The position numbers and the translations under genes were made by a program. Positions 24,023 to 28,386 of a stretch of DNA of 64,000 nucleotides are shown here, in pieces. Origin of the DNA: Pseudanabaena sp. ABRG5-3. Its GTDB lineage: Bacteria; Cyanobacteriota; Cyanobacteriia; Pseudanabaenales; Pseudanabaenaceae. The notes beneath the pieces are model-generated. The model was not told where the DNA came from, made no database searches, and was given only the letters and a program-made list of their open reading frames with translations. Where the stretch lies: positions 4,152,048-4,216,047 of the forward strand of contig NZ_AP017560.1 of NCBI RefSeq assembly GCF_003967015.1. Direction: 5' to 3'. Within the stretch, counting starts at the first letter, position 1, and every line of letters starts with the position of its first letter.

Positions 24023-26044
24023 TCATTCAATGGGTGCAATAATCCTTTCATCAAACTGACGTAGTGTGTGTGGAATATTCTCAAGATGTGCTTCAAGAAC
24101 GTCTCTACTTTCACTTGTAGCGATTATTACCTGTTGGTTATATTGCAGTGAATTACTTGCTCTTCTTAAAAATGCCTCAATGCTAGTCTCACGAGCGCTT
24201 TGTTGACGTGGTTCATCTAAGATAAGCAACCCAAGATGATTAGTTTGATGGCTTCTAGAAACTTCCAATAAACCTAGTAAATAAGCCCAAAAAATTCTAA
24301 TGTAGTCACTCGCGGACAGATCAAATCTCAAATCAAATCCTTCGTATTCGGGGAAATATGAAGTGTTAGATATTTTGACTTCACTGATATTTAAACTACT
24401 AAAATTATACTCAGTAAGTTGTTGTTGGAAACATACTTCTAAATCCCTAATTTTAGCTGTGTCTTCATTAGATAGTATTCCTTTTGGAAGCCTTCTAATC
24501 ATTTCTTGAACTTCATTCCAATCATCTGATAATGGTTCAAAACTACCAAGCAATACATCAATTTGTTCACGAACTGACTTAGTATGTCGAATTTTATCTT
24601 TAAGTCTAATTCTTTCTTCTATAGCAAAATAAGATGGCGAATTATTAGGAGAAGTTAAAGTTGTTTTAAGAGATCTAATTTCTTCTCTAATATCTGCTAC
24701 ACGACTATTGATTGCATTAAGCTGTCTCCTTTTAATCTCAAGGGTTTGCATTTCACTTTGACGCATTGCTTTAAATATTTTGAGCTGCTCTTCAATGAAT
24801 TCCACATTTTGATCTATTGTCATTGGGTTGCTAACTTCTTGAGGTGCAATCAGTGAATCGCTAATATGTTGATGACAAGTTGGACAAGTTCCAGAATTAA
24901 CTTGTAGATCAGTTACTGAACCGAGATTTGATAATGTTTGAAGATCTTTATGTTTAGACAATTCTTCTTCTAAAGAAAAAATTCTAGATTGAAGAGAATC
25001 AACGCTAATTGTAGAATTTTCAATTTCTTCAAATTTAATTCGTAATTGCATCTCAATATTTAATTTCTCTATATTTTTCTGCTCCAATTGCTCATTAACA
25101 ATTTCGGAAATTTCATTAACAACAGGAATTTCTTGGGCTTCCAAAGACGCAAGTTGTTGTTCAAAATCTAAAATAGCTTGCCCTATACTTATCCAATCGT
25201 TAGCATAAGATACTAAAACTGCTGGTTGAATAGTCGGCGGCCAAATTGATATTGGTTGTGATGGTAAATTATCGATAGTTGCATTAATGCTTGCAGCCAG
25301 ACGATTACATTCTGAGACTTTGTTAGACCAATGAGATTTTAAATTTGCTTCTTGTTGTTTAAGCAGTACTTTTTGAGTAGCAATTTCTTGAGCATCTAAG
25401 TTAAAAATAAACTCAAATGCTCTTTTATTCAAATCTTTTATCCGAAAATAAGTTGGAAATCTATTGCGTAAATTTGACCATCCATGTTTTTGTTCAACAA
25501 ATAGGAATGGAAATATTGTCTCAATATAAAGTGTGATTTCAGTTTCGTCATAGGTTGGTACTGTTGGAAGTTGCCATCCAATAAATTCTGCTAAAAAATG
25601 GTGAAATCCTCTTTCTCTAGAAGCTGATCCACTTCGCCTCACAAAATAGTCAGTGGAAAGACAAGAAATATTAGGTTGAGACAATATTGCATCTTCCCAA
25701 ACAGTAATTAAATGAATATTTTGATTGCCTTTTATTTGGCGACGTATTGTTATATTTTTAGAACCATTTGACACTTCAAGTAACACCTCAGATTCCAAAA
25801 CTGGATATCTTACATTTTGATATTCCAGAAGATCAGTAACTACTGAAGGTAAAGGAATATTATGTTGTGGACTAATCATGCCTTCTAGACCTAAAGCATA
25901 AATAATCGACTGTAGACAAGTTGATTTTCCCGAAGTATTATCAGCATGTAGAACAAAAAGCCCCTCACGAAAAGGTATGTCTACACCAAATAGACCTGCT
26001 GGTGTAAAAACTCGTATACGAAGATATCGAATTTGTAAAGACAT
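24023..26044 (-). CDS. SMC/Rad50-like ABC ATPase with zinc hook (ABC-3C/Lamassu-type)
   Basis: 673 residues. N-terminal Walker A ADNTSGKST (34-42). Two long coiled-coil arms (about 210-385 and 395-520) flank a zinc hook CPTCHQ (C about 386 and 389). The C-terminal lobe has the Walker B LGLLILDEP (about 603-611) after the signature-region motif DLSASDYIRIF, then a His-containing switch area. It is much shorter than Rad50 and lies in an operon with a small middle protein and a nuclease-like effector, the arrangement of ABC three-component (ABC-3C) and Lamassu/DdmABC defence systems. In those, the SMC dimer senses foreign DNA ends or structures and releases the effector. The gene starts 3 nt after the middle component. 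Confidence 0.82.
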   Translation of the reverse strand: MSLQIRYLRIRVFTPAGLFGVDIPFREGLFVLHADNTSGKSTCLQSIIYALGLEGMISPQHNIPLPSVVTDLLEYQNVRYPVLESEVLLEVSNGSKNITIRRQIKGNQNIHLITVWEDAILSQPNISCLSTDYFVRRSGSASRERGFHHFLAEFIGWQLPTVPTYDETEITLYIETIFPFLFVEQKHGWSNLRNRFPTYFRIKDLNKRAFEFIFNLDAQEIATQKVLLKQQEANLKSHWSNKVSECNRLAASINATIDNLPSQPISIWPPTIQPAVLVSYANDWISIGQAILDFEQQLASLEAQEIPVVNEISEIVNEQLEQKNIEKLNIEMQLRIKFEEIENSTISVDSLQSRIFSLEEELSKHKDLQTLSNLGSVTDLQVNSGTCPTCHQHISDSLIAPQEVSNPMTIDQNVEFIEEQLKIFKAMRQSEMQTLEIKRRQLNAINSRVADIREEIRSLKTTLTSPNNSPSYFAIEERIRLKDKIRHTKSVREQIDVLLGSFEPLSDDWNEVQEMIRRLPKGILSNEDTAKIRDLEVCFQQQLTEYNFSSLNISEVKISNTSYFPEYEGFDLRFDLSASDYIRIFWAYLLGLLEVSRSHQTNHLGLLILDEPRQQSARETSIEAFLRRASNSLQYNQQVIIATSESRDVLEAHLENIPHTLRQFDERIIAPIE

Positions 26045-26047
26045 ATA

Positions 26048-26569
26048 TTAAGAAAGTTTAAATAGACTTTTTGATAGCTCAGCAGTGATTAGTTTACCCT
26101 TTTGTTTAAGAAATTTTTTCTCTTCTTCTAAACAGTTGTTTGTAGCAATTATCTCTTTCGCGAATTTCTTGCCCTTTGCAGTTAAAGATATAGGCTTATT
26201 AGTAGCATTATTCTTTATTTCTACTAGTCCATCAGCAATAGCATATTCAATCGCTCTGGTGAATCCAGGATCGTATTTAATAAACTCAGCAACAGGTGAT
26301 GATCTATTTTCTATTAGTTGAGACATTCGCTCCCGATTCTCATTGCTTCGGATTGCCCAATTCAAAAGGTGTAGACGACTAAGTGGACTTGTTTGAGCTT
26401 TACTACCAATTTCCAAAATTAAAACTAATATTGATAACCCCCAAATCACTCTGTATTGGGGAGATAAAGGCGTGGGTCGTTGCTGAAAAGAAAATGGAAT
26501 ATCTAGATACTCTAATAACTCTTGTATTTCCATGATTTTGAACTGTTTACTTAGAAATCTAAAGGACAT
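26048..26569 (-). CDS. Middle component of the ABC-3C/Lamassu-like operon
   Basis: 173 residues, all-helical with one hydrophobic helix (YRVIWGLSILVLILEIG, about 44-60) and a winged-helix-like end (IEYAIADGLVEIKNNATNKPISLTAKGKKFAKEI). This size and position fit the middle component that links effector to SMC ATPase (LmuC/DdmB or ABC-3C MC type). The start at 26569 overlaps the effector gene by 19 nt; ATG 26533 (MEIQELLEY) is an alternative that would avoid the overlap. By itself the sequence would not be recognised; context carries the call. Confidence 0.65.
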   Translation of the reverse strand: MSFRFLSKQFKIMEIQELLEYLDIPFSFQQRPTPLSPQYRVIWGLSILVLILEIGSKAQTSPLSRLHLLNWAIRSNENRERMSQLIENRSSPVAEFIKYDPGFTRAIEYAIADGLVEIKNNATNKPISLTAKGKKFAKEIIATNNCLEEEKKFLKQKGKLITAELSKSLFKLS

Positions 26570-27474
26570 CTCATCAACCAGTCTGAAATCGCTTCTAAAG
26601 AAAGTTTTTTGATTATTGTGCTTGATAAATTAGGAGTAACATTTTTAATATTTTGCTCATATTCCTTATGTGTTTTGCTAAAAAATTGATTTGATGGAGC
26701 ATCATTAATCAAACTAGTCATAAACAATTCTTTTTCATATGTAAGTTTGTAGTTGCTCAGACTAGCATACAAGTCAGGATAGTTATTGCTTAATTGATTT
26801 AATAAATTTTGTCCACTTAAATACTGATCTATTATTAAACGCTTAAAGCTTTCAAGCTTGTCATCGGGAGCAAGGCTAAGAATTTTTTGCCCCTTAGTGT
26901 CCAAATTTTTAACTAGACCATCATTTAAATTTAGCCACTCTTCACGATTTTCAGAATTAATTTCTGCATCTGGAACGTCAATATCTATAACTCCTACATT
27001 AGCAAGTTCATTTCTTTCTTTAGCAAAATGGTCATCTCTCACAATAAGTATTTTAAAGTCATTTGAAACATATGGAAGATTTAAGTCTAATACCTCTTTA
27101 GCTTTTTTGGATGCATGTTGTGCTAACAAAGCGCTATCAAAAACTGGTACGATTAGAATCCATCGATTGATAACTGTATTACCGAAAAGCTTTATGAATT
27201 CAGCTTTGTTCTTTATAAATTTGCCAATATCGGTGGTGATTTTATCTCGTTGGGCTTCATATCTCTGATTTGTTTCATAAGCCTCAGTTGCATAACATTG
27301 AAAAACAGCCCCACAACTTGAATAACCTTCAATCCCAAAATCACCTTTATGCTTTGCTGGTACTTCTTGATAATTCAGTTTGTAGTGTCTTTTGAGTAAT
27401 AGTTGAATATAAGCTTCCCATTCTTCTCCCTCGTAAAAGCGCATATTTTTTGAAGAACTCATACTATCTCGCAC
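26551..27474 (-). CDS. Putative restriction-endonuclease-fold effector of the ABC-3C/Lamassu-like operon
   Basis: 307 residues. The N-terminal domain (about 11-170) has the order of a PD-(D/E)xK nuclease: helix EGEEWEAYIQLLLKRHY with Glu19-type residue, then GDFGIEGY with Asp45, then AVFQCYA with Gln59. The usual lysine after Q/E is replaced by Tyr61, so catalysis may be altered or use another lysine. The C-terminal half (about 180-307) is helical with no known motif and may contact the middle component. First gene of the operon. GTG at 27474 is the longest start; ATG at 27462 or 27444 (MRFYEGEEW) are possible and put the nuclease domain at the very N-terminus. Confidence 0.65.
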   Translation of the reverse strand: MRDSMSSSKNMRFYEGEEWEAYIQLLLKRHYKLNYQEVPAKHKGDFGIEGYSSCGAVFQCYATEAYETNQRYEAQRDKITTDIGKFIKNKAEFIKLFGNTVINRWILIVPVFDSALLAQHASKKAKEVLDLNLPYVSNDFKILIVRDDHFAKERNELANVGVIDIDVPDAEINSENREEWLNLNDGLVKNLDTKGQKILSLAPDDKLESFKRLIIDQYLSGQNLLNQLSNNYPDLYASLSNYKLTYEKELFMTSLINDAPSNQFFSKTHKEYEQNIKNVTPNLSSTIIKKLSLEAISDWLMRCPLDF

Positions 27475-27579: not shown

Positions 27580-27894
27580 CTAAACAAGCACAGACTCAGA
27601 TTTTCTTACTTCAGCATTTTCTTGATACCTACCGCGAATCTGCACATACTCATCTTCCAATAGAAAATCTTTTACCTTCTCATAGTCTCGCGCCGAATAA
27701 ACCATTTGATACCCCTCAGTTGGATCATAAAGTGTATAGCTTCCATCCACATCACCAACTAACATCAACACATAGGGCAGATCCGAACTAGGATCGACCC
27801 ACATTTCAATAAACTTCCAGTTAGATAACTTCGCTTGGTTTTGTGCATTGATTCCTCTCGGTGGTTTATGTTTGTCACCATCCTCTAGCGGCAT
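27580..27894 (-). CDS. Hypothetical protein
   Basis: 104 residues, acidic and soluble. A charged N-terminus (EDGDKHKPPRG) precedes strands with aromatic residues (WKFIEMWVDP, YVLMLVGDVDGSYTLYDP, QMVYSARDYEKVKDFLLEDEYVQIRGR). This looks like a small immunity or adaptor protein, but there is no clear family. It follows DUF2442 by 5 nt, so it is probably co-transcribed. Confidence 0.5.
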   Translation of the reverse strand: MPLEDGDKHKPPRGINAQNQAKLSNWKFIEMWVDPSSDLPYVLMLVGDVDGSYTLYDPTEGYQMVYSARDYEKVKDFLLEDEYVQIRGRYQENAEVRKSESVLV

Positions 27895-27899
27895 AAATT

Positions 27900-28181
27900 T
27901 TAAATTACCCTTGATTTTCTCGGAGCAGGCGCACCACGCAACATACCTTCAGTACTCAGATCCTCATCAAGATCTTCCCAATGAATACCATAACCACCAC
28001 CGCAGACTTCCCACCTAGCAAGCTGCTCAATAGTTCCATTCAATAACCTCGGATACCACACTAACGGAACTACAATTGTCCGCCCATCCATCAAATCAAC
28101 ACTGATCGTATCTTCAGTAAAGCTAACATTCTTAACTCTCTCATCGGTCTTAATCGCCAAAGTACTCATACCAAGCCTCAA
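27900..28181 (-). CDS. DUF2442 protein
   Basis: 93 residues; KNVSFTEDTISVDLMDGRTIVVPLVWYPRLLNG and WEDLDEDLSTEGMLRG are the DUF2442 core, residues 18-85. DUF2442 is regularly paired with DUF4160 and behaves like a small toxin-antitoxin or regulatory module in context. ATG at 28169 (MSTLAIKTDERV) may be the real start; both starts lie within the DUF4160 reading frame, overlapping it out of phase. Confidence 0.82.
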   Translation of the reverse strand: MRLGMSTLAIKTDERVKNVSFTEDTISVDLMDGRTIVVPLVWYPRLLNGTIEQLARWEVCGGGYGIHWEDLDEDLSTEGMLRGAPAPRKSRVI

Positions 28182-28386
28182 GTAACTGTGTTTGATTTTC
28201 GATCACCATAGATTACAGTTTCCTTAACTCTTTAGCGGGAAACCCAATATTTTGAGCTAAGCTAACTGACTGCAACCAAAACTTAGCTGTCAAGTTATCG
28301 CGATCAATATGAATATGTGGTGGTTCATTTGGTTCGTGACTGTAAAAATAAAAACGATATGCACCAATCCTTAAAATCGTTGGCAT
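28150..28386 (-). pseudogene. DUF4160 gene broken by an in-frame stop
   Basis: Reading from ATG 28386 gives MPTILRIGAYRFYFYSHEPN, then PPHIHIDRDNLTAKFWL, the DUF4160 core with the metal-like HxH. At codon 58 there is a TAA (28213-28215). The same frame resumes without a shift as SMVIENQTQLLEAWYEYFGD and stops at 28150-28152. That second part is the usual DUF4160 C-terminus (a helix ending LLEAWxEYFG). A single substitution would restore a 78-residue protein. As it stands a 57-residue product is made. It overlaps the start of DUF2442, as intact pairs do. Confidence 0.82.

What the first reader, a model, noticed from the sequence alone, without database searches (positions are those of the whole stretch)
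28150..28386. DUF4160 with one in-frame stop and a perfectly preserved tail
Seen: after TAA at codon 58 the same frame continues as SMVIENQTQLLEAWYEYFGD and ends normally, overlapping the DUF2442 start exactly as in intact pairs. No frameshift and no other decay. Either a very recent nonsense change, or stop readthrough/suppression, or a sequencing error.
Basis: partly seen in the sequence, partly recalled or inferred. Interest (0 to 1): 0.5.

Follow-up and report, generated by a model that had tools for sequence, protein, structure and literature searches.

The report
Nonsense-broken toxin beside intact antitoxin
One base change has put a stop inside the toxin gene of a cyanobacterial toxin-antitoxin pair while its antitoxin stays whole, an ordinary way for such pairs to die that recurs across this gene family.

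Summary
The minus-strand DUF4160 gene (28386-28150) has TAA at codon 58 (28215-28213). The frame continues unbroken for 20 codons, ends normally, and overlaps the intact DUF2442 gene by 20 nt. DUF4160/DUF2442 is the published toxin-first type II system dhiTA (Dickeya; Thermus "PEM"), so the broken gene is the toxin. All 6 distinct close orthologues from other genomes of the genus have a Gln codon there: the stop is private, one C-to-T transition. The lost tail holds W72, invariant in 43 intact relatives. No stop-reading tRNA was recognised (two atypical matches unassigned). In-frame stops recur in this family on the toxin side: 10 of 53 cyanobacterial pairs and 2 of 29 pairs of a second group, against 0 antitoxins after checking, at many codons and with all three stops. 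That fits toxin loss, not recoding. The preserved tail needs no translation to explain it: its DNA carries the antitoxin's start codon and probable ribosome-binding site, and 7 of 9 partial toxin remnants keep this end. Best reading: a recent loss-of-function mutation of DhiT. A base-calling error cannot be excluded without reads.

The parts
28150..28386 (-). DUF4160 (DhiT-like toxin) gene with in-frame TAA; 57-aa truncated product
28213..28215 (-). premature TAA, codon 58; Gln codon in 6 of 6 distinct close orthologues
28150..28212 (-). preserved tail: 20 sense codons plus normal stop; in intact relatives it encodes the end of helix 51-63 and all of helix 65-76, incl. W72, invariant in the 43 aligned
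28176..28179 (-). GAGG, probable Shine-Dalgarno of the antitoxin, inside toxin codons 70-71, 6 nt before its ATG (read by eye)
   Evidence: sequence printed
27900..28169 (-). DUF2442 (DhiA-like antitoxin), intact, 89 aa, start inside toxin tail

Best explanation
The locus is a dhiTA-type (DUF4160/DUF2442) toxin-antitoxin operon whose toxin gene has been inactivated by one recent nonsense mutation, a Gln codon turned into TAA, while the downstream antitoxin remains intact and translatable from its own start inside the toxin's tail. Shown: the stop, its absence in close relatives, the intact antitoxin, the conserved residues that are lost, and the recurrence of toxin-only stops across the family. 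Inferred: that the 57-aa product is non-toxic, that the antitoxin is still made, and that the tail persists because the event is recent and its DNA doubles as the antitoxin's translation-initiation region.
For: Private single transition: of 6 distinct orthologues above 93% identity, 5 have CAA and 1 CAG at codon 58 (protein level). Apart from that codon, 10 of 63 pairwise codon differences counted are missense, the rest synonymous, so the gene is otherwise constrained. W72 (invariant) and E70 and F76 (90% or more) in 43 intact relatives chosen from the loci lie in the lost part. In the model of an intact relative (mean pLDDT 94.4) the stop falls inside helix 51-63 and removes helix 65-76. Family pattern: of 53 adjacent pairs found in 386 cyanobacterial genomes, 10 toxins have an in-frame stop and no antitoxin does once two false flags are removed (checked in 31, 35, 37, 40; binomial p=0.002). 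A second sample of 29 pairs in 369 genomes gives 2 versus 0. The roles of the two genes come from experiments in PMC8198452 and PMC12724237 (passages read).
Against: No reads, RNA or protein data, so a base-calling error is possible. Loss of toxicity of the 57-residue product is not measured. Several stop-bearing toxins elsewhere also look otherwise intact, which taken alone could hint at tolerated readthrough, and codon 65 is hit in five loci (two clean, three otherwise damaged), so positions are not perfectly scattered. The signal on this branch (0 missense, at most 2 synonymous private codons) is too small to date the event. One of the ten toxin stops (G118:C33) may be a frameshift. Some unpaired antitoxins are decayed too (8 of 24 flagged). 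Anchoring on the antitoxin favours intact antitoxins; the pair counts do not depend on it.
Confidence: 0.8

Rival explanations
1. Base-calling or assembly error: the genome really has the sense codon and an intact dhiTA pair.
For: Only one substitution, in an otherwise undamaged gene, private to this genome; no reads available.
Against: Of 26 ORFs of 120 aa or more from a G022 stretch that match the window above 60% identity (8223 aa, some of them overlapping shadow frames), 25 align in one frame. The exceptions are o7, near 62-64 kb, with two frames and one stop, and one stop in o28, which lies antisense to o18 (ORFs without such a match were not counted). Completeness is 99.81%. Toxin-only stops occur in other genomes too.
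Confidence: 0.13
2. Stop readthrough or suppression: ribosomes insert an amino acid at codon 58 and make some full-length toxin.
For: The tail is preserved and in frame; the closing stop and overlap match intact pairs.
Against: The stop is absent from 6 of 6 close orthologues. ARAGORN, run on stretches covering all 52 RF00005 matches of the genome, called no TTA, CTA or TCA anticodon; two matches were not called by ARAGORN, one a truncated tRNA with a UAC-like loop (read by eye) and one with a 65-nt insert whose anticodon I could not assign. The same gene ends with TAA. Stops in other members lie at other codons and use all three stop codons. TAA followed by T is recalled (no call) as a strong termination context in E. 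coli.
Confidence: 0.04
3. A split toxin: a 57-aa part plus a 19-aa part restarted at ATG 28209-28207, three bases after the stop, complementing each other or keeping ribosomes moving to the antitoxin start.
For: An ATG lies just after the TAA, with an AAGGAA upstream (read by eye from the sequence).
Against: The break falls inside a helix; no relative is split there; no independent support.
Confidence: 0.03

Closest known systems
dhiTA of Dickeya dadantii 3937 (DUF4160/DUF2442)
   Same: Same two Pfam domains, toxin gene first, short overlap (-3 in Table 1 of PMC8198452); in the paper dhiT overexpression inhibits growth, the pair together does not, and the pair represses its own promoter (passages).
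   Different: Here the toxin frame is interrupted at codon 58; the overlap is 20 nt; a cyanobacterium.
Thermus thermophilus plasmid 'persistence enhancing module' (DUF4160/DUF2442)
   Same: Same domains and order; a vector lacking the second ORF gave no Thermus transformants, one lacking the first did (PMC12724237, passages).
   Different: Plasmid-borne and intact; this one is on a 4.8-Mb contig with a broken toxin. That paper saw no effect of either single ORF on E. coli.
Degenerating chromosomal type II toxin-antitoxin loci of E. coli
   Same: Decay by deletion or nonsense mutations is described there (review PMC7167474, passage read).
   Different: Different families; here, in the pairs examined, the in-frame stops lie on the toxin side.

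Membership tests
dhiTA-type toxin-antitoxin system | Upstream gene encodes a DUF4160 protein | tested here: met
   PF13711, 56.6 bits for the 57 aa alone, 72.4 bits read through
dhiTA-type toxin-antitoxin system | Toxin reading frame complete | tested here: not met
   TAA at codon 58 of 78; 6 of 6 distinct close orthologues complete. The toxin is therefore filed as a pseudogene, not as a working DhiT.
dhiTA-type toxin-antitoxin system | Downstream, overlapping intact DUF2442 gene | tested here: met
   PF10387 92.2 bits, open frame, 20-nt overlap
dhiTA-type toxin-antitoxin system | Toxin inhibits growth and antitoxin neutralises it | not testable with these tools
   Reported for Dickeya and Thermus members (PMC8198452, PMC12724237, passages read)
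Programmed stop-codon recoding | In-frame stop conserved among relatives | tested here: not met
   0 of 6 distinct close orthologues have it; stops elsewhere are at other codons
Programmed stop-codon recoding | Dedicated suppressor tRNA | tested here: inconclusive
   No TTA/CTA/TCA anticodon called over the stretches of 52 tRNA matches, but two atypical matches were not called

The most novel reading that the evidence does not exclude
Toxin-dead, antitoxin-live dhiTA loci are not merely dying modules but a recurrent, selected state in cyanobacteria: the retained DUF2442 antitoxin protects against DhiT toxins brought in by plasmids or other elements (anti-addiction) or acts as a regulator, so nonsense hits in the toxin are repeatedly fixed while the antitoxin and its start region are kept.
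Probability: 0.15. Interest if true: 0.45.

Novelty: new member of a known kind. Interest (0 to 1): 0.2.

Why it matters
As a single locus it is ordinary: a decaying toxin-antitoxin pair. Its value lies in the pattern it led to. In 82 adjacent pairs from two bacterial groups, in-frame stops were found in DUF4160 12 times and in DUF2442 never. This is genome-scale support, outside the two systems tested in the papers I saw, for DUF4160 being the toxin and DUF2442 the antitoxin. It also shows that a preserved 3' tail in a broken upstream gene can reflect the downstream gene's start region rather than readthrough.

Tried and rejected
Readthrough was tested by codon conservation, a tRNA survey and the positions of stops in relatives, and rejected as unsupported. 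A fold-based function for DhiT: the AlphaFold2 model of an intact relative gave no Foldseek match at E<=0.001 among 237 at E<=10; VIA-align gave a best Z of 5.5, rmsd 3.2 over 77 residues, to a chain described as a p32 homologue, within the range the tool warns is common. Neither the fold nor the biochemical target is assigned. The model of the truncated 57-aa window protein alone (pTM 0.37) is too poor to use. Sequence search of solved structures: one hit at E=0.61 for DUF4160; two hits for DUF2442, an uncharacterised protein at E=4e-8 and CV0863 at E=0.005. PADLOC and NCBIfam listed nothing for the toxin, antitoxin or the 104-aa neighbour at E<=0.001. Literature: 6 papers hold DUF4160 and 4 hold DUF2442; I read passages of three of these. 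Searches on decayed or orphan toxins and antitoxins gave 61 papers with 12 listed, 0 papers and 9 papers with 8 listed, of which I read passages of two more; this is no claim that the pattern is unpublished. Searches on dhiT and dhiTA returned mostly unrelated words. The tool's flag of one in-frame stop in antitoxins of G327, G146 and G569 was rejected: in each the stop is the normal end of the gene. My first locus classification was superseded by the profile-based one. One search translated a wrong frame and is not used.

Full report
What is there. On the minus strand, 28386 to 28150 encodes a DUF4160 protein. The frame runs 57 codons, meets TAA at 28215-28213, continues in the same frame for 20 codons and ends with a normal TAA. 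The profile match runs through the stop from position 2 to 64 of 65. Downstream, an intact DUF2442 gene has an ATG at 28169 inside the tail. A GAGG six bases before this ATG lies in toxin codons 70-71 (read by eye from the sequence). It is the only DUF4160 match in its genome at E<=0.001. The closest named relatives are Pseudanabaena; the genus of the window is inferred.

What the pair is. [quoted passage not shown] In Dickeya dadantii, overexpressed dhiT inhibits growth, the pair together does not, and the pair represses its own promoter (PMC8198452, passages and a table row read). In Thermus, a vector lacking the DUF2442 ORF gave no transformants, while one lacking the DUF4160 ORF did; both were stable in E. 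coli (PMC12724237, passages read). That paper's predicted complex changes the toxin markedly at its C-terminus. A marine survey also lists a DUF4160/DUF2442 pair (PMC12654330, table passage). So the broken gene is the toxin.

The stop is private and simple. Six distinct orthologous sequences above 93% identity, all from genomes of the same genus, were compared (L031-L034 repeat four of them). Five have CAA and one CAG at codon 58. The window gene differs from all six at only two other codons, 43 and 67, both synonymous; there is no private missense change. Over the six comparisons, leaving out codon 58, 10 of 63 codon differences are missense (counted), so the gene has been constrained until recently. 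The locus is orthologous to that of G022: the same NlpC/P60 gene and the two genes beyond it follow at 91-99% identity. Of 26 genomes of the genus examined, this one included, 19 have some DUF4160 match and 7 none.

Consequence. In an alignment of 43 intact DUF4160 proteins, chosen by me from the loci, W72 is invariant, and E70 and F76 are kept in 90% or more; all lie in the lost tail. In the model of an intact relative the stop falls inside helix 51-63 and the whole of helix 65-76 is lost. Loss of function is therefore very likely but not measured.

Is it recoded? The stop is not conserved. The gene's own terminator is also TAA. Infernal found 52 tRNA matches in the genome. ARAGORN on stretches covering them called no TTA, CTA or TCA anticodon. 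Two matches were not called: a truncated one with a UAC-like loop and one with a 65-nt insert whose anticodon I could not assign. Other members of the family carry stops at codons 6, 10, 15, 18, 29, 35, 37 and 65, among others, with TAA, TAG and TGA. Codon 65 is hit in five loci, of which two are otherwise clean and three damaged, so the scatter is not perfect. On balance this argues for independent losses rather than a programme.

A family pattern. I searched 386 cyanobacterial genomes with a toxin and then with an antitoxin query; both searches report 386 genomes with recurring handles, and stops are read through in both. They form 53 adjacent pairs. Ten toxins carry in-frame stops, each checked by translation. 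One of these (G118:C33) may instead be a frameshift followed by a stop, one (G327) has two stops, one (G118:C25) lacks a matching N-terminus, and one (G178) lacks the first ATG. Two antitoxins were flagged, but their stop is the normal end, so the count is 10 versus 0 (binomial p=0.002); the other 51 antitoxins rest on the tool's flag. Sixteen toxins and 24 antitoxins were unpaired and left out of this count; 1 and 8 of them bear flagged stops, so some unpaired antitoxins are decayed too. A second sample, 369 genomes of the class of G408 (titled Methylobacter; that this is Gammaproteobacteria is recalled), gave 29 pairs out of 29 toxins, with 2 toxin stops and, after the same check, 0 antitoxin stops. 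There the rate is lower, and by itself it shows nothing.

Anchored on antitoxins, 80 loci (the best 80 of 236) gave 50 with both genes intact; 23 with an open antitoxin and a toxin that is not found (11), stopped (6), fragmentary (5) or frameshifted (1); 1 with an intact toxin and a broken antitoxin; 2 with both damaged; and 4 cut by a contig edge. This set is biased towards intact antitoxins.

Why the tail is preserved. Of the 9 partial toxin matches in that set, 7 keep the 3' end and 2 the 5' end. The 3' end holds the antitoxin's start and probable ribosome-binding site. In the 6 orthologues, codons 72-78 show no difference from the window gene. So a clean tail is expected for a recent hit, and its last part is expected even without translation as toxin. 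It is not evidence for readthrough. In another toxin-first system, mqsRA, promoters specific to the antitoxin are reported (PMC6918082, abstract passage), so an antitoxin made without its toxin has a parallel.

Sequencing error. I compared ORFs of 120 aa or more from 57 kb of G022 with the window; 26 match above 60% identity (8223 aa, some of them overlapping shadow frames). In 25 the match lies in one frame. The exceptions are one ORF near 62-64 kb (two frames, one stop) and one stop in an ORF that lies antisense to another ORF. The sequence therefore looks clean, but one miscalled base cannot be excluded.

Verdict. The most likely reading (0.8) is a recent nonsense inactivation of the toxin of a dhiTA pair. 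Decay of chromosomal toxin-antitoxin loci by nonsense mutation is known in E. coli (review PMC7167474, passage read). What is added is the toxin-side bias in this family.

Noticed in passing
window 24023-27474 (-): Three genes just downstream of the pair match the anti-phage system Lamassu (LmuA, LmuC, LmuB). They were not found in the 17-kb stretch around the orthologous pair in G022, so this flank looks like a variable defence region.
   Followed up: partly
window 27580-27894 (-): A 104-aa protein without Pfam, PADLOC or NCBIfam match lies directly downstream of the antitoxin; a homologue in two pieces lies directly upstream of the toxin in L009 and L034.
   Followed up: no
L068 1799-2026 and 2549-2776: Two copies of the toxin gene with identical translation lie in tandem 750 bp apart (the same spacing in G319).
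   Followed up: no
L201 (G000:C1:3031000-3032800): A cluster of seven tRNA genes (Arg, Thr, Met, Pro, Leu, Asn, Phe) in 1.5 kb, additional to tRNAs with the same anticodons elsewhere in the genome.
   Followed up: no
L215 118-239 (G000:C1:3020917-3021038): A tRNA-like match with good acceptor, D and T arms but a 65-nt insert at the anticodon arm; identity not assigned.
   Followed up: partly
L103 2001-2218: Pseudanabaena mucicola FACHB-723 has a frame-broken DUF2442 remnant and no recognised DUF4160: a later stage of decay of the pair.
   Followed up: partly
L261 1501-1725: A second truncation in the tail: a TGA falls at the invariant Trp (codon 72) of a DUF4160 gene next to an intact DUF2442.
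   Followed up: partly
codon 65 of DUF4160 in L041, L044, L137, L152, L218: The same codon carries a stop in five loci (TAA in four, TGA in one), three of them with further damage; a mutation-prone codon or a tolerated C-terminal cut, not resolved.
   Followed up: no
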